Shown: positions 1,648 through 36,066 of the stretch, piece by piece | How positions within the stretch are numbered: the first letter of the stretch is position 1 | Layout: each line of letters starts with the position of its first letter | Origin: a virus | Direction: 5' to 3' (one strand) | DNA length: 64,000 nucleotides | Virus record (IMG/VR): IMGVR_UViG_3300035670_000019 | Location: 1-64,000 of that record | Made by a program: the position numbers and the translations under genes | The notes under the pieces: generated by a model | Databases searched by the model: none | What the model was told of the DNA's origin: nothing | What the model saw: only the letters and a program-made list of their open reading frames with translations

Positions 1648-2121
1648 ATGAAAAAATCTGAGCTAAAACAACTTATAAAAGAAGAAATTATTAAAGTATT
1701 AAACGAACGTGGGGTTATAGATGAAGGTTGGAAAGAAAACATTTTAGTAGGATTAGCTTCTTTAGCTGGCTCTTTAGGTTTAGGTTTAAAAGCCCAAGAT
1801 ACAGTCCAAAATATGCCTTCTAAAGAAAAAACAGAAACTTCATACTCAGCTGAAGAATCATATCAAGTTCTTATAGGATATTTAATAGAATTAGACCAAG
1901 CAGGAGCATCAACTAAAACCCCAGAAGAATTAGGTGCTATGAAAGAAGCTAGAATGTATCTTGAAGCACTTCGAGATAATCAAACTCCTAAATCTTTATC
2001 TAATCCCGCTAAAGTAGTTTTAAATTATGCTATAAAAGAGACTAAAAATTTAAGTGGTTTTGAATTAAAAAGATTATCTGATTTAGGTGAAAACATTAAA
2101 ACAATAAGTTACAATGAATAA
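1648..2121 (+). CDS. Leader-bearing putative internal capsid protein (class A)
   Basis: 157 residues. The first 20 residues form a class A leader with ELKQLIKEEIIKVLNE, ending in L-N-E at residue 20. After it comes a short Gly/Ala/Leu-rich hydrophobic stretch (about residues 31-48) and then a mostly helical, charged domain. In T4, internal head proteins carry N-terminal capsid-targeting peptides removed by the gp21 protease at L/I-x-E sites; this leader has that form and recurs in several other genes here. Function after processing is unknown. The start is fixed by the leader, and the 3' end overlaps the next gene by eight bases. Confidence 0.6.
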   Translation: MKKSELKQLIKEEIIKVLNERGVIDEGWKENILVGLASLAGSLGLGLKAQDTVQNMPSKEKTETSYSAEESYQVLIGYLIELDQAGASTKTPEELGAMKEARMYLEALRDNQTPKSLSNPAKVVLNYAIKETKNLSGFELKRLSDLGENIKTISYNE

Positions 2122-2569
2122 CTGGTTTTGGTATGAGAATGCTCAAATTAAAGAATTTAAATCTATAGAAGATTTCCCACAGGATAGCTTTGGATTTATT
2201 TATAGGATCACAAATAGAGTGACAGGTAAATTCTATATTGGTAAAAAAAGTCTTTACCATAACATAAAGAAAAAACTCACCAAAAAAGAACTAGCTGAAC
2301 AATCTGGTCCTGGTAGAAAAGCAACTACTAAAAAAGTACATAAAGAATCTGATTGGCTAACATATTGGGGCTCTAATAAAGAAATATTAGAAGAAATAAA
2401 ATTAAATGGTAACCTAGCATTCCAAAGAGACATTATCAAAATAGTTAATACTAAAAAAGAATTAACATACTGGGAAGTCTATTACCAATGCCAGTATAAT
2501 GTTTTACGTGCAAATAGTTATAATGATAACATATTAGGAAAGTTTTTTAAAAAAGACTTTGTTTCTTAA
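2114..2569 (+). CDS. GIY-YIG-like putative nuclease domain protein
   Basis: 151 residues. Residues 28-43 (FIYRITNRVTGKFYIG) fit the two short strands of a GIY-YIG nuclease fold, here written FIYRI...FYIGKK, followed by a basic stretch and a conserved region SDWLTYWGSNKEILEEIK. Similar single-domain proteins are common in T4-like phages and usually lack the DNA-binding repeats of homing enzymes, as this one does. Possible roles are DNA repair, recombination or host DNA degradation; the sequence does not decide. It overlaps the preceding leader protein by eight bases, so the two are probably co-translated. Confidence 0.6.
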   Translation: MNNWFWYENAQIKEFKSIEDFPQDSFGFIYRITNRVTGKFYIGKKSLYHNIKKKLTKKELAEQSGPGRKATTKKVHKESDWLTYWGSNKEILEEIKLNGNLAFQRDIIKIVNTKKELTYWEVYYQCQYNVLRANSYNDNILGKFFKKDFVS

Positions 2570-3526: not shown

Positions 3527-4332
3527 TAGAAAAAAATGTAAATGTCTATAAAAAACAAGTAACTCGTATACTTAATATAGACCCAACTTCAAAAAGAGTA
3601 AATGTATTTGATAACAGATTTTATAGTAGAAATCAAGATTATTACCCTTCTGTTACTAGTATATTACAATTTATGCCTAAAGGTAAATTTTTTGAAACTT
3701 GGCTTAAAGATGTAGGACATAACGCTGATATTATAGCTAGAAAAGCGGCGGATGAAGGTACACAAGTACATGATGCTATTGAAAAATATCTTAAAGGAGA
3801 AAAAATTCAATGGGTAAATGAAGAAGGATACTCTAATTACTCAATGGATGTATGGAAATTAATTCTTAAATTCCATGATTTTTGGACTACATATAAACCT
3901 ATCCTAATCGAAAGCGAAATTCATTTATTCTCAGATCAATATAAATATGCAGGAACATGTGATTTAGTTGTTGAAATTGATGGAGTAAGATGGTTATTAG
4001 ATATTAAAACTTCAAATTCAATTCATACATCTATGGATTTACAATTAGCAGCTTATGCTCAAGCATGGAATGAAACATTTGAAGAAAAAATAGAAAAAAC
4101 AGGTATCATCTGGTTAAAATCTTCTAAACGTGGTGAAGGAAAAGGGGATAAAATTCAAGGTAAAGGATGGGAAATATATGAACCAACACGCACATTTGAA
4201 GAAAATTTAAAATTATTTAATTCTATACATGAATTATTTAAACTTGAATATCCTAACCCAAAACCATCTTCTGAACAATTCCCTATTGAGATTCAACTAG
4301 ACCCTAATATTTATGAGAAAACTCAAGAATGA
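3523..4332 (+). CDS. PD-(D/E)XK nuclease, RecB/Cas4-like
   Basis: 269 residues. The order of motifs is that of the RecB/Cas4 branch of the PD-(D/E)XK superfamily: EGTQVHDAIEKYL (conserved His motif), then YAGTCDLV with D147, then LLDIKTS with D160 and K162, then the QLAAYAQ motif IV helix. The enzyme would be a metal-dependent exonuclease or endonuclease acting on single-stranded or broken DNA. It overlaps the primase by four bases at its start and the next gene by four bases at its end, tying it to replication or repair. No Cas4-type iron-sulphur cysteine cluster is visible, which argues against a CRISPR role. Confidence 0.82.
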   Translation: MIEKNVNVYKKQVTRILNIDPTSKRVNVFDNRFYSRNQDYYPSVTSILQFMPKGKFFETWLKDVGHNADIIARKAADEGTQVHDAIEKYLKGEKIQWVNEEGYSNYSMDVWKLILKFHDFWTTYKPILIESEIHLFSDQYKYAGTCDLVVEIDGVRWLLDIKTSNSIHTSMDLQLAAYAQAWNETFEEKIEKTGIIWLKSSKRGEGKGDKIQGKGWEIYEPTRTFEENLKLFNSIHELFKLEYPNPKPSSEQFPIEIQLDPNIYEKTQE

Positions 4333-5243
4333 TTTCTTTAATAAAGCTATTACATGAAGTTCTTATCGATGAAGGTGGAAATGTGTTTAAAGGTACAGAA
4401 TTTGATGCTCAAGATATAGTATTAGATAATATTAAACCTACAGTTGAAAAATTTGTTAGTGATTTAAGTAAAATTTTTCCTAATAAAAAAGCAACATTTA
4501 CTCCATTAACTGATAAAAGTAATTGGTTAGGCTCAACCGGTAGTAAACCTAAATCTGGAGACGTTGACTTAGCCTACTCATCAGAACATCTATTTAAAGA
4601 TGGAAAAGCTGATACTAATGGATGGGGTATTAATCAAAATGAATATGATGCTTTGTATGAAAAAACAAAGAAATCATCTCGTACAGCTACTGATGAAGCA
4701 GTTCAAACTAATGCTTTAATACGCTTAATTGTTAGTAAAATTAACAATGCTGGTAGTGATATATATGCTAGTGATAAAGCAGCAAATGGAGGCACTATCC
4801 ATTTCTCATACCCACAGTACACTCCAACAGGAGAGAAATTAGATTCAAGAGCCCAACTTGATATAGACACAGGAGATATGGATTGGTTAAAATTCAGATA
4901 CAATTCTGAATTACCTGAAGATAATCCTGAAATTAAAGGTTTACATAGAGGACAATTAATGTTAGCTATGTTTGCTGCTACAGGTTATACTTTTAAAAGT
5001 GGTAGAGGATTTATACGTAAAGAAACAGGTGATGTTATTGCTGATAAACCCCAAGGTGCTTTAGAAGTATTCAATCAAGAATATCAACCAACACAACCAC
5101 TAACTTTAGAGATAATTAATAATTATGATAAATTAATGAGTTATATTAAGACTAACCTTAAACCTGAAGATCAAACTAAAACATTAGAAATGTTTAAGGA
5201 AGCGTTACGAAGAGCAAATGCGTATGTCCCTGATAATATTTAA
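4329..5243 (+). CDS. Nucleotidyltransferase-like protein with class A-type leader
   Basis: 304 residues. WLGSTGSKPKSGDVDLA has the Gly-Ser and D78-x-D80 signature of polymerase-beta-fold nucleotidyltransferases, and QLDIDTGDMDW further on could supply the third carboxylate. The N-terminus MISLIKLLHEVLIDE followed by GG resembles the leaders described for other genes here, with I-D-E ending at residue 15. The substrate (protein, RNA or small molecule) cannot be told. The next gene carries a second nucleotidyltransferase motif, so the two look like a functional pair. If the leader is a capsid-targeting sequence, this would be an enzyme carried in the virion; that part is inference. Confidence 0.65.
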   Translation: MISLIKLLHEVLIDEGGNVFKGTEFDAQDIVLDNIKPTVEKFVSDLSKIFPNKKATFTPLTDKSNWLGSTGSKPKSGDVDLAYSSEHLFKDGKADTNGWGINQNEYDALYEKTKKSSRTATDEAVQTNALIRLIVSKINNAGSDIYASDKAANGGTIHFSYPQYTPTGEKLDSRAQLDIDTGDMDWLKFRYNSELPEDNPEIKGLHRGQLMLAMFAATGYTFKSGRGFIRKETGDVIADKPQGALEVFNQEYQPTQPLTLEIINNYDKLMSYIKTNLKPEDQTKTLEMFKEALRRANAYVPDNI

Positions 5244-5248
5244 ATAAC

Positions 5249-7669
5249 ATGAGTGGAGCAGCAGGTGGTATCACCATTAATAAAGAAAATTTAAAAGCAA
5301 CAATTCGAGATTACAGAGATAATGTTTTAAAACCATTAGGTCTTGATAAATCTTATAATGTTACTGGGGTTCGTTCTAGACCTGAAAAAAATACCTTTGG
5401 AGACATTGACATAATTATATCCTTCCCAGGAGGTGATAAAAAAGAACTTAAACAGCAATTAGCCCAATTCCTAGAACAAGTAGAAAAAATCCCAGAAATC
5501 CCTCATAAGAAAAATAAAAAATATTTCATACATGGTTCTATAGTCTCTATTTTATACCCAATATCTGGAAGAGAAAATGAGTATGTTCAAATAGATAATG
5601 TTGTTACGTCTTCTGAAGATGAAGGTAAATTTACTTACAGAATGTTAGATTTACCTGCTCAAGAACAAGGTTTAGCTTTAGGTTTAGCTAAAACTATATT
5701 TACAGAATTAGATGAAAAACAAATAGAACAATTATTTAGAAACCTAAACATCCCTCAAGATATTGAAAAACCAGGTGAAGGAGAAGAATATGATTTTAAC
5801 CTGAACACTTCAGAATTATCTTTAAGGATTGTTCCTATAGGTAAAAATGACGGAAGAGAAATATGGAAATCTAATAAATTTTCTGATATTAAAACCTTAC
5901 TTGCTTCTTTAGGTATTGATATTGAAAAAGATAAATTTGAAGCTATAGTTGAAAAAATTAAAAAATTCAAAAGTAGAAGATCAATAGATAGACTTAAAGG
6001 AATGTTTGCTAGAAATATTCGAGTTGGTGATACTGAAATTACAAGAGAAAAAGGTATTAAAAAACAACAATCACTAGATGCTGTAGCCGCTTTAGAAGGT
6101 AAATATAGTCCTTTAGTAATGAGTTTAATTAAACCATTTATAGAGGGAGAAACTATTATTGTAGAAGATGAAAATCAATCTAAAAAAGTAATAGCAGTAT
6201 TCCCAGGCAAATTTAAACCACCTCATAAAGATCATATAGCTCGAATTAAAGCCGCAGCTAATGATGCTGATGAAGTACTTGTCTTAGTGTCTCCAAAAAC
6301 AGAACCAAGTGGTACTGATAAGAAAAGTAGAGAAAAACTTGAAACCCAAATTCCTATATCAGCAGATCAAAGTTTAAGTATTTTTAAATCACTTAATCTT
6401 CCAAAAAATGTTAAAGTATTATTATCAAATGACTCATCTTTACCTGTACCTTCACCAAGTCCTGTAGCTGCAGCTTATGAATTATTTAAAAACAATCCTG
6501 AACAACAATATATAGGGGTATTTGGAAAAGAAGAAGATTTTGCTAGATTTGGATCCACTCCTTCAAATGTAATTATTAAAAATTATGATGGGTCAGCTGG
6601 AAATTTAAGTGCTACTGACTTAAGAGCAGCTTTGAAAAATAACCAGGATATAATTTCTTTCCTACCAGACGGGATTACTTCAGATGAATATAGACAAGTA
6701 TTAGGCTTAGATAATATTGATGAAGGTGATGAAATAACATCATTTTTAGATGAATATATAAATAATAAAGATTTAGAAGATATTGATCAAATAGCTGATG
6801 AAGAATTAGATACAGATGTTGTTTTTAATAAAGGAACAGACAATCACTTTGTTAAAAGAGCTAATGAACGTGGAGTTAGTAAACAAGATTTAATAGATTT
6901 TTTTCAAGAATTAGGAGCAGCAAAAGATGAATTCAAAGATGAATTTGAAGATCTAATTAACAACTATGAACCTGGGGAACCAAAACCTGCTATAGTTGCT
7001 AAAGATGAATATACTGGATTTAGTATACCATTTGTATCTGATAATATACGTAAAATATTAGCTACAACTATACTTTCTCCTGGGATGAAACCTAAAGAGA
7101 AAAAAACATTTAGTTTTTCTGAATCAGAAAATTTTGAACCATTACCAGATATAGACTTAAACACCTCTTCAGAATCATCTAGGGTTGATTATTATAAAGA
7201 TCATATTCAAAATGTAGTACCATCTGATTTTAAAGTTGATAAACATAAAGATAAGATTGTAGTATCTAATATCACTAAAAAAGGATTAGAACATAATAAA
7301 GAATTTAAAGACAAATTAATATCTTTAACAATGTTTATGATGGATAATGGTTTAAATATTGAGCCATTACCTGATATTAATTTTATTGAAGATGATAAAG
7401 AAAATGCTGTTGATATATTAGGACGTACAGCTCATTATGACCCAAACCAAAAATGTATTACTTTATACACTTATGGTCGTCATCCAAAAGATGTATTACG
7501 TTCATATGCTCATGAGATGATTCATCATCTACAAAACCTTGAAGGTAGAATCCAAGGTATTAAAGGTCAAAATGTTAATGAAGATGATTATTTAAAAGAA
7601 TTAGAAATTGAAGCTTACAGAGATGGAAATATTTATCTCCGTAGATGGGAAAATTCAACTAAAAAATAA
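5249..7669 (+). CDS. Multidomain protein: nucleotidyltransferase + NMNAT/cytidylyltransferase-like + metalloprotease-like
   Basis: 806 residues with at least four parts. (1) Near residues 38-56 the stretch up to G51-D-I-D54 fits a polymerase-beta-type nucleotidyltransferase. (2) From about residue 312, VFPGKFKPPHKDH is an HxGH-type nucleotidylyltransferase motif with Asp in place of Gly, matched by NLSATDLR (the I/S-S-x-x-R type motif) about 130 residues later, so both halves of the active site are present. (3) Around residue 531, NHFVKRANERGVSKQDL is a small conserved helical motif. (4) At the C-terminus H755-E-M-I-H759 is a zinc-metalloprotease signature. Fusion of these activities is unusual. 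The gene lies five bases behind another nucleotidyltransferase. Whether each domain is active is not shown. Confidence 0.7.
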   Translation: MSGAAGGITINKENLKATIRDYRDNVLKPLGLDKSYNVTGVRSRPEKNTFGDIDIIISFPGGDKKELKQQLAQFLEQVEKIPEIPHKKNKKYFIHGSIVSILYPISGRENEYVQIDNVVTSSEDEGKFTYRMLDLPAQEQGLALGLAKTIFTELDEKQIEQLFRNLNIPQDIEKPGEGEEYDFNLNTSELSLRIVPIGKNDGREIWKSNKFSDIKTLLASLGIDIEKDKFEAIVEKIKKFKSRRSIDRLKGMFARNIRVGDTEITREKGIKKQQSLDAVAALEGKYSPLVMSLIKPFIEGETIIVEDENQSKKVIAVFPGKFKPPHKDHIARIKAAANDADEVLVLVSPKTEPSGTDKKSREKLETQIPISADQSLSIFKSLNLPKNVKVLLSNDSSLPVPSPSPVAAAYELFKNNPEQQYIGVFGKEEDFARFGSTPSNVIIKNYDGSAGNLSATDLRAALKNNQDIISFLPDGITSDEYRQVLGLDNIDEGDEITSFLDEYINNKDLEDIDQIADEELDTDVVFNKGTDNHFVKRANERGVSKQDLIDFFQELGAAKDEFKDEFEDLINNYEPGEPKPAIVAKDEYTGFSIPFVSDNIRKILATTILSPGMKPKEKKTFSFSESENFEPLPDIDLNTSSESSRVDYYKDHIQNVVPSDFKVDKHKDKIVVSNITKKGLEHNKEFKDKLISLTMFMMDNGLNIEPLPDINFIEDDKENAVDILGRTAHYDPNQKCITLYTYGRHPKDVLRSYAHEMIHHLQNLEGRIQGIKGQNVNEDDYLKELEIEAYRDGNIYLRRWENSTKK

Positions 7670-34636: not shown

Positions 34637-35452
34637 ATGAAAACACTTCAAACACAATATAACCTTATTAAAGAAGGTAAAGGCGATAAAGCATACTTTA
34701 TGAAACTTGCTCGCTACAACTTCCCAGACCTTATTACTCCTGTATTATCATATAATGATACTATTACTGTATTAAAAAATAAAAGTATCTTATCTGAAGG
34801 TATTGGTGGTGTAGTAACTAAAGGTAAAACACCTGATTGGCATTCTATCTTTAAAGAAAATATTACTGAAGCTACTAAAGAAGCTAAAGCTGAAGAAAAA
34901 GAAACTACTAAAGAAGTAACTGACATGGCAACACGTGGTTATGACTATAAGGATGAAAAAAATTATGATAATGTATTTGGTCAAGAATTCTTAAAAGGAT
35001 TCTATACTGAAATGCAAGATCCTAAAAATGAAGATAAAACAGTAGAAGAATTAAGAGCAATTGTAGCTAAAAACTTAGCTAAAGACTGTAATTACTATGT
35101 TAAAGATGGCCAATTTGGTATTAAAGGTGTGGGTTATACTGTTGATGCTCCCGGTTTAGGAGAACCAAAACCTGCTAAAGGTAAGCATAAATCTTCAGGT
35201 TATGGTGATTTACAAGAATCAGTATTACGTTCTCAAATTTATTTGTTAGCTAAAGAAATGTTATTTGAAGAAGATAAAAAAGATTCTAAAGAAAATAAAA
35301 AATCTGAATCAAAAATAATTGATGCTTTAAGAAAAGAATATAAATTTGATTTAAAAGGTGTAGAGAATGATAAAAATTGGGACAAATTATCTACCAAATC
35401 AAAATTAAAAGTTAAAGATTATATACGATTTGATATGAATCAAGAGCATTAA
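34637..35452 (+). CDS. Prohead-core-region protein, unknown
   Basis: 271 residues. It begins MKTLQTQYNLIKEGKGDKAY and FMKLARYNFPDLITP, a start I associate with several proteins of this phage group. A Lys/Glu-rich coiled coil follows (TEATKEAKAEEKETTKEVTD) and then a conserved region around CNYYVKDGQFGIKGVGYTV. The gene sits directly before the protease (two-base gap), suggesting a core or scaffold-associated function. Confidence 0.5.
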   Translation: MKTLQTQYNLIKEGKGDKAYFMKLARYNFPDLITPVLSYNDTITVLKNKSILSEGIGGVVTKGKTPDWHSIFKENITEATKEAKAEEKETTKEVTDMATRGYDYKDEKNYDNVFGQEFLKGFYTEMQDPKNEDKTVEELRAIVAKNLAKDCNYYVKDGQFGIKGVGYTVDAPGLGEPKPAKGKHKSSGYGDLQESVLRSQIYLLAKEMLFEEDKKDSKENKKSESKIIDALRKEYKFDLKGVENDKNWDKLSTKSKLKVKDYIRFDMNQEH

Positions 35453-35454
35453 TT

Positions 35455-36066
35455 ATGAAACAAATACTTATTGAAACCCAAACATTCTCTGCCAAACCAG
35501 TCAAATTAATTGAAGGTAAAGGTAGTAATAACAATATATTAGTTCAAGGTATATTAGCAACAGCCGAAGTAAAAAACGGTAATGGTCGCTATTATTCAAG
35601 AGATTTATGGGAAAGAGAAATTAATAAGTATATGGAGAGTGTTAATGCCAATAGAGCATTAGGCGAACTAGATCATCCTGATTCTTCTATTATTAATTTA
35701 AAAAATGTATCCCATAATATTAAAAAAATATGGTGGGATGGAGATAATGTGATGGGAGCAATAGAAATTCTACCTACCCCTTCAGGCAATATATTATCTG
35801 CTTTATTTCAAAACAATATTCCAGTAGGTGTATCATCACGTGGTATGGGTTCATTAAAACAAATGGGTGAACTAATGGAAGTACAAGATGATTTTGAATT
35901 ATTATGTTGGGATTTTGTCTCAACCCCATCAAACCCAGGTTCATATATGAAAGAAAAAGGCATGATGAATGAATCTAAAACACCTCAACAATATAACCAA
36001 TATGCTAAAGTAAATTCTATTATCACAGACATACTTTGTGCTAATGGAACTTGCCCAATATTTTAA
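35455..36066 (+). CDS. 21: Prohead protease (gp21-like)
   Basis: 203 residues (T4 gp21 has 212). H74 in ALGELDHPDSS and S127 or S128 in PVGVSSRGMGS form the herpesvirus/T4-type serine protease site, with KNGNGRYYSRDLW upstream as the usual family start. It should sit in the prohead core, cut itself, the scaffold, the capsid protein and any leader-bearing internal proteins after L/I-x-E, and then be destroyed. Its presence supports the interpretation of the L-x-E and I-x-E leaders in this window. Two hairpins follow the stop. Confidence 0.92.
   Translation: MKQILIETQTFSAKPVKLIEGKGSNNNILVQGILATAEVKNGNGRYYSRDLWEREINKYMESVNANRALGELDHPDSSIINLKNVSHNIKKIWWDGDNVMGAIEILPTPSGNILSALFQNNIPVGVSSRGMGSLKQMGELMEVQDDFELLCWDFVSTPSNPGSYMKEKGMMNESKTPQQYNQYAKVNSIITDILCANGTCPIF

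What the first reader, a model, noticed from the sequence alone, without database searches (positions are those of the whole stretch)
5249..7669. Four-part enzyme: nucleotidyltransferase, nucleotidylyltransferase, small helical motif and metalloprotease-like end
The combination of GDID, PPHKDH with SATDLR, NHFVKRANERG and HEMIH in one 806-residue chain is not a family I know. The HxGH-type motif has Asp for Gly. Protease at the C-terminus could release the other domains, or the protein may be an injected effector that modifies and cuts host targets.
Basis: partly seen in the sequence, partly recalled or inferred. Interest (0 to 1): 0.7.

Follow-up and report, generated by a model that had tools for sequence, protein, structure and literature searches.

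The report
Phage multi-enzyme chain with protease
A virus of Flavobacterium-like bacteria makes one long protein that joins two nucleotide-transferring enzymes, a possible RNA-cutting domain and a zinc protease; relatives keep the ends and swap the middle, which suggests a multi-tool precursor carried in the virus particle to take over the host, though delivery is not yet shown.

Summary
One 806-residue ORF (window 5249-7669) holds four modules: a Pol-beta/family-X-like nucleotidyltransferase (model Z 11.8), a HIGH-type nucleotidylyltransferase, a small domain with weak RelE/RegB similarity, and a zincin-like C-terminus (HEMIH plus a downstream Glu, 78 of 78 relatives). It is not a sequencing join: the same order recurs in 11 other distinct ORFs, and the ortholog in the isolated Flavobacterium phage immuto is syntenic. 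The family is a mosaic: HIGH and protease are mostly kept, with 0-996 residues of variable cargo between them.

The gene is second in a two-gene unit. Its partner, a paralogous nucleotidyltransferase, is replaced in other phages by a Zeta-toxin-family kinase. Both unrelated partners start with a near-identical leader that fits the published description of the T4 capsid-targeting sequence. The units tend to start at a motif, ATATTTAT, enriched before structural genes.

Best reading: a packaged, proteolytically matured polyvalent-type effector delivered with the DNA. Modules and family are shown; late expression, packaging, cleavage and injection are inferred. This chain has no N-terminal leader of its own. 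I rate it a new variant of a known kind.

The parts
4307..4314 (+). Promoter-like motif ATATTTAT before the partner gene, start of the two-gene unit
   Evidence: the same motif lies within 70 nt upstream of 64 of 67 distinct NTase-A genes
4329..5243 (+). Partner gene NTase-A, paralogue of module 1 (304 aa)
   Evidence: profile hit at its GDxD core; GS and SGDxD in 70 of 70 aligned
4329..4373 (+). Leader of NTase-A (15 residues), predicted to end at Glu15|Gly16; fits the residue 4/7/8/10 description of the T4 capsid-targeting sequence
5249..7669 (+). The four-module ORF, 806 aa
5249..6142 (+). Module 1, Pol-beta/family-X-like nucleotidyltransferase, aa 1-298; GDID 51-54, third Asp 116
6107..6184 (+). 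Linker aa 287-312, resembling the N-terminal leader of relatives that begin with HIGH; candidate cut region
   Evidence: [LI]xE in 70 of 70 distinct NTase-HIGH linkers
6185..6709 (+). Module 2, HIGH-type nucleotidylyltransferase, aa 313-487; HKDH 326-329, SATDLR
6794..7078 (+). Module 3, NHF..R domain, aa 516-610, possible RelE/RegB-type RNase
7190..7657 (+). Module 4, zincin-like protease, aa 648-803; HEMIH at 7511-7525, Glu786
   Evidence: HExxH and E786 in 78 of 78; Foldseek top hits IrrE and selecase at weak E-values; Wss1 Z 8.3, rmsd 3.1, 105 aligned
7629..7636 (+). ATATTTAT inside the 3' end of the ORF, 36 nt before the next gene (7673)

Best explanation
The ORF encodes one member of a mosaic family of polyvalent-type effector precursors of T4-like phages of flavobacteria. 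Inferred mechanism: it is made late together with its partner NTase-A, enters the prohead core (the partner carries the targeting leader; this chain would enter with it or through an internal leader-like segment), and is cut at Glu-ending linkers by the prohead protease and/or by its own zincin into separate enzymes. These enter the new host with the DNA: a Pol-X-like nucleotidyltransferase pair, a HIGH-type nucleotidylyltransferase, a RelE/RegB-like endoribonuclease and the protease. Shown: the four modules, their conserved catalytic residues, model folds of modules 1 and 4, the mosaic family, the two-gene unit, the shared leader, the motif. Weakly supported: the RNase assignment. Inferred only: late expression, packaging, cleavage, injection, host targets.
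For: Modules and folds. Mosaic with variable cargo, including nucleotidyltransferases, RegB and DUF4258 hits, and one HYD1 ADP-ribosyltransferase hit. Alternative partner is a Zeta_toxin kinase in the 3 of 3 scanned. Leader (hydrophobic 4, 7, 8; Glu 10) in 33 of 34 kinases and 32 of 54 NTase-A, against 1 of 218 and 4 of 215 genes of two genomes, matching the T4 determinants. Leader ends Glu|GGNVF in 69 of 70, and immuto starts Met-GGNVF. [LI]xE[AGS] 0.43 per 100 aa outside modules against 0.00-0.07 inside. ATATTTAT before 64 of 67 NTase-A genes, enriched at structural genes. Prohead protease homolog present.
Against: This chain has no N-terminal leader of the targeting type. Immuto NTase-A lacks the leader and the exact motif. 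The gene follows primase and exonuclease genes. ATATTTAT is absent before the major capsid gene and present before PhoH and dpdA. Module 3 matches are weak and the window copy itself hits neither RegB nor DUF4258. [LI]xE without the fourth residue is not enriched in linkers relative to module 4. No virion data were found.
Confidence: 0.55

Rival explanations
1. An intracellular NAD or nucleotide metabolism enzyme: the HIGH domain makes NAD+ (NMN adenylyltransferase, as annotated in immuto) to counter NAD-depleting defences, and the other modules are accessories.
For: phrog_3462 NMN adenylyltransferase E 1.8e-7; NMN, nicotinate-nucleotide and phosphopantetheine adenylyltransferases among the profile hits; immuto annotation.
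Against: No NAPRTase/NadV in the 163-kb record, whereas a survey found NadV with every NadM phage (PMC9503650, passages). Does not explain the protease, the RelE/RegB-like module or the variable cargo.
Confidence: 0.2
2. An intracellular DNA-repair or replication machine: a Pol-X-like enzyme with a Wss1/SPRTN-like protease clearing protein from phage DNA, encoded beside primase and exonuclease.
For: Best fold matches are family-X polymerases and Wss1, with SPRTN entries below it; neighbours are primase and exonuclease.
Against: Those fold matches are distant (14-17% and 8-11% identity). HIGH, the RelE/RegB-like module, Zeta kinases and ADP-ribosyltransferase-like cargo do not fit repair. A motif-led unit separates the gene from primase.
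Confidence: 0.15
3. A toxin or superinfection-exclusion protein acting in the producing cell, not packaged.
For: Toxin-type cargo and partner, with fast module exchange.
Against: No immunity gene recognised next to it; the leader and the linker sites would be unexplained.
Confidence: 0.1

Closest known systems
Polyvalent proteins of phages and conjugative elements (PMC5512222, passages read)
   Same: Many unrelated enzyme domains in one chain; zincin as hub; BECR/RelE-like RNase, nucleotidyltransferase and ADP-ribosyltransferase themes
   Different: There Pol-beta NTases are reported only from conjugative elements and are minimal; here the NTase is Pol-X-like, HIGH is the core module, no ArdC-N or LPD domain was listed at E 0.01 in cargo or tails, and the phages are T4-like
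T4 internal proteins and Alt (capsid-targeted, gp21-processed; PMC9026906 and PMC3012670, passages read)
   Same: Short leader with determinants at residues 4, 7, 8 and 10, cut after Glu; diverse cargo behind a conserved leader; prohead protease homolog present
   Different: The leader is on the partner gene, not on this chain; multi-module chain; packaging untested
NMN adenylyltransferases NadM/NadR
   Same: HIGH fold by sequence profile
   Different: No NadV found in the record; Asp in the HxGH motif of this clade; no Nudix or kinase domain recognised in the chain (in some relatives a Zeta-type kinase is the preceding gene)
Family X DNA polymerases
   Same: Model fold and three Asp
   Different: 14-17% identity; polymerase activity untested
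Zincins (Wss1/SPRTN, IrrE/PprI, selecase)
   Same: HExxH and downstream Glu, model fold
   Different: Below Pfam cut-offs; no close solved relative

Membership tests
Polyvalent proteins | Several unrelated enzyme domains in one phage polypeptide | tested here: met
   four modules, other combinations in relatives
Polyvalent proteins | Zincin of the MPTase-PolyVal type | tested here: inconclusive
   PF18818 in 6 of 28 members, best E 0.0057, under cut-off
Polyvalent proteins | Delivered into the host at invasion | not testable with these tools
   only indirect signs
Polyvalent proteins | Linked to domains named in that survey (ArdC-N, DarA, LPDs) | tested here: inconclusive
   none listed by Pfam at E 0.01 in 36 cargo and 33 of 34 tail stretches; one HYD1 ADP-ribosyltransferase hit
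T4-type capsid-targeted internal protein | N-terminal capsid-targeting leader on this chain | tested here: not met
   chain starts MSGAAGG; leader only on the partner NTase-A
T4-type capsid-targeted internal protein | Prohead protease encoded by the phage | tested here: met
   own ORF at 35434-36063 is 47% identical to the immuto prohead core protease
T4-type capsid-targeted internal protein | Present and processed in virions | not testable with these tools
   no virion proteome found
NadM/NadR NMN adenylyltransferase | HIGH fold with HxGH and the second signature | tested here: inconclusive
   fold met; HKDH in place of HxGH; substrate unknown
NadM/NadR NMN adenylyltransferase | NadV partner in the genome | tested here: not met
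   0 of 1 record; record may be incomplete
Pol-beta superfamily / family X | Palm fold with three carboxylates | tested here: met
RelE/RegB endoribonuclease | RelE fold and catalytic residues | tested here: inconclusive
   4fxe_F Z 5.1, 74 aligned; REGB_T4 5 of 15, under cut-off, window copy none; only His533 and Arg537 strongly kept among candidate catalytic residues
Zincin metallopeptidase | HExxH plus downstream ligand in a zincin fold | tested here: met
   78 of 78; activity untested

The most novel reading that the evidence does not exclude
T4-like flavophages carry a swappable capsid-delivered polyprotein: a fixed HIGH-protease chassis with interchangeable toxin-like and enzyme cargo, broken into individual enzymes in the prohead by the capsid protease at leader-derived linkers, with a leader-bearing partner (an NTase or a Zeta-type kinase) as carrier.
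Probability: 0.3. Interest if true: 0.82.

Novelty: new variant of a known kind. Interest (0 to 1): 0.62.

Why it matters
It extends the polyvalent-effector idea to environmental T4-like phages of Bacteroidota (304 viral stretches encode a relative of the first module) and offers concrete, testable packaging and cut signals, so that delivered enzymes could be predicted from sequence. An isolated phage (immuto) carries an ortholog, so virion proteomics could decide it.

Tried and rejected
Sequencing error or mis-joined genes: rejected, since 11 other distinct ORFs have the same four-part order. Direct sequence search of solved structures with modules 1, 3 and 4 gave nothing useful; folds came from models. 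A pure NAD-salvage reading was weakened by the missing NadV. The T4 late-promoter word TATAAATA was not enriched (21 forward against a Markov expectation of 21-23), while ATATTTAT was (53 forward, 11 reverse, expectation 25-26). A loose regular expression for leaders found 12 of 218 N-termini against a shuffled mean of 6.6 and maximum of 14, so no clear excess; a position matrix trained on loci leaders found only NTase-A here and two proteins in immuto. Searching viral contigs with the module-3 alignment was not possible. Genome contigs gave 6 loci, all from metagenome-assembled genomes. Pfam on 36 non-redundant cargo and 33 of 34 tail stretches left most of them unnamed; the shortest tail stretch was dropped before alignment. 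Searches of papers for this family or for an immuto virion proteome found none; preprints and most subscription journals are not held. In the structure lists many rows are chains of one listed germ's lethal factor; I used them only as members of a fold family and fetched nothing.

Full report
What is there. The ORF at 5249-7669 (+) reads through 806 codons and lies in a 163,030-base virus record. The record is largely syntenic with Flavobacterium phage immuto (Immutovirus), with T4-like terminase, gp20 and gp23 homologs. The ortholog, immuto gp182, is annotated NMN adenylyltransferase and follows the same neighbours: primase, exonuclease and gp181. In 50,697 phage records the whole protein finds only four immuto records.

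Modules. Profiles grown from the window protein define four modules. Module 1 (aa 1-298): no match to solved structures by sequence, but a good model (pLDDT 82.9, pTM 0.78) matches family-X polymerases (Foldseek E 1.3e-5, TM only about 0.3-0.45; VIA-align Z 11.8, 183 aligned, 3.4 A, 17% identity), with the three Asp in 11 of 11 relatives aligned. Module 2 (aa 313-487): a profile of 33 relatives finds 51 PDB sequences at E 0.01 or better, NMN, nicotinate-nucleotide and phosphopantetheine adenylyltransferases alike, so the fold is clear and the substrate is not. Module 3 (aa 516-610): His533 in 33 of 33 and Arg537 in 32 of 33. The model matches RelE at Z 5.1 over 74 residues. Pfam RegB hits 5 of 15 relatives and DUF4258 2 of 15, all weakly; the window copy hits neither and instead gives a weak EF-hand-like match. 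I call it a possible RelE/RegB-type RNase, not more. Module 4 (aa 648-803): modelled at pLDDT about 92-98 over most of the domain. The top Foldseek hits are IrrE and selecase but with weak E-values (0.045 and above). In the VIA list Wss1 leads (Z 8.3, 3.1 A, 105 aligned), then PprI/IrrE, SPRTN and other zinc peptidases, with one non-peptidase metal RNase at Z 7.2. HExxH and Glu786 are in 78 of 78. Pfam finds zincin families only weakly: M91 in 16 of 28 members, DUF6782 in 10, MPTase-PolyVal in 6.

A mosaic family. A scan with the protease domain gave 156 viral stretches, 80 loci kept. A scan with module 1 gave 304, 80 kept. Outside the window, distinct intact ORFs comprise 32 HIGH-protease, 26 NTase-HIGH-protease, 17 protease only, 14 HIGH-module3-protease, 9 with all four modules, 3 with two HIGH modules, and rarer forms including one of 1536 aa that also fuses the upstream paralogue (the six-frame ORFs were not curated, and contig-cut ORFs were tallied apart). 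The distance from HIGH to protease runs from -11 (overlapping profile ends) to 996 residues in 103 distinct ORFs, window included. Pfam on 36 non-redundant cargo stretches, the window's among them, finds nucleotidyltransferase families, RegB (3), DUF4258 (2), one HYD1 ADP-ribosyltransferase (E 1.8e-4), zinc ribbons and several DUFs. On 33 of 34 tail stretches it finds DUF6934 (6) and 5'-nucleotidase (4); in immuto that nucleotidase is the separate next gene. One cargo nucleotidyltransferase (of L126) has relatives in cyanophage records, outside any such chain as far as annotated.

A two-gene unit with a shared leader. In nearly all NTase loci the gene just before is a shorter paralogue, NTase-A, whose catalytic GS and SGDxD are in 70 of 70 aligned. 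Where the chain lacks the NTase, the preceding gene is in 42 of 65 distinct cases a P-loop kinase, in 17 the chain begins with the protease, and 6 are other. The three kinases scanned are all Zeta_toxin family above the cut-off (44.6-62.7 bits against 22.3). Kinases and NTase-A are unrelated, yet both begin with nearly the same eleven residues: hydrophobic at 4, 7 and 8 and Glu at 10 in 33 of 34 distinct kinases and 32 of 54 distinct NTase-A, against 1 of 218 genes here (NTase-A itself) and 4 of 215 in immuto; internal Met windows give 4 of 659 and 0 of 715. For T4 the targeting determinants of the internal-protein leader are reported mainly at residues 4 and 7 and the processing determinants at 8 and 10 (PMC9026906, passages), with cutting after Glu (PMC5694885, passages). 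The NTase-A leader ends Glu|GGNVF in 69 of 70; the exception is immuto, whose protein starts Met-GGNVF, that is, at the predicted mature end. Chains that begin with HIGH have another leader, and the NTase-HIGH linker of the window resembles it. The site [LI]xE[AGS] occurs 0.43 times per 100 residues outside the modules and 0.00-0.07 inside; the three-residue form [LI]xE shows no such contrast (1.40 outside, 0.12-1.43 inside).

Expression. ATATTTAT occurs 53 times forward and 11 reverse, and 41 of the 53 lie within 60 nt of a start codon. It precedes 7 of 12 structural and 2 of 26 metabolic genes here (p 0.0017) and 7 of 21 against 2 of 38 in immuto (p 0.007). It precedes 64 of 67 distinct NTase-A genes but 1 of 69 NTase-B chains, 25 of 42 kinases and 15 of 17 protease-first genes, against 125 of 967 other ORFs. 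So the unit starts at the partner gene and tends to carry the same upstream motif as structural genes. The motif is not before the major capsid gene and is before PhoH and dpdA, so 'late' is an inference.

How it most likely works. Polyvalent proteins are described as multi-enzyme chains delivered at infection, with zincins as the proposed means of cutting them into units (PMC5512222, passages). The present family fits that theme by composition, by zincin hub and by a toxin-type partner. It differs in its Pol-X-like NTase, its HIGH module, its T4-like phages and its leader-bearing partner. I infer packaging with NTase-A, cutting at Glu linkers, and delivery. Against this, the chain itself has no N-terminal leader and no virion data were found. 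I therefore do not file it as a capsid-targeted protein or a proven polyvalent protein; it works like one, with confidence 0.55. Rivals are NAD metabolism (0.2; no NadV found), DNA repair (0.15) and a non-packaged toxin (0.1).

Noticed in passing
G000 whole record; window 4307, 9700, 19130, 29723, 31326, 39215, 55031, 56819, 58445: ATATTTAT is a strongly strand-biased, start-proximal motif (53 forward, 11 reverse, 41 within 60 nt of a start), a likely promoter of this phage group.
   Followed up: partly
window 2114-2566: A GIY-YIG nuclease (SegE_GIY-YIG, 92.8 bits) before the primase; its immuto and PHROGs relatives are called 'NAD synthetase', probably a propagated mis-annotation.
   Followed up: partly
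window 1648, 13044, 16912, 23207: Four proteins begin with another amphipathic leader type (MK..L..[IL][IL].EE..); 16912 and 23207 also have ATATTTAT upstream, and 13044 is DUF5872. Possible further packaged proteins.
   Followed up: no
G000 81104-88196: Homologs of immuto dpdA, queC, queD, queE and folE: probable 7-deazaguanine DNA modification.
   Followed up: no
G000 136685-136933 (L184): A weak Zeta_toxin match (21.1 bits, below the 22.3 cut-off) in a 271-aa frame far from the unit.
   Followed up: no
L004 7056-7982 and immuto gp182 C-terminus: Some relatives carry a second HExxH-type stretch after the protease module.
   Followed up: no
L006-L010, L029, L068-L070: A CxxC...CxxC zinc-ribbon-like segment recurs before or after the protease module.
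   Followed up: no
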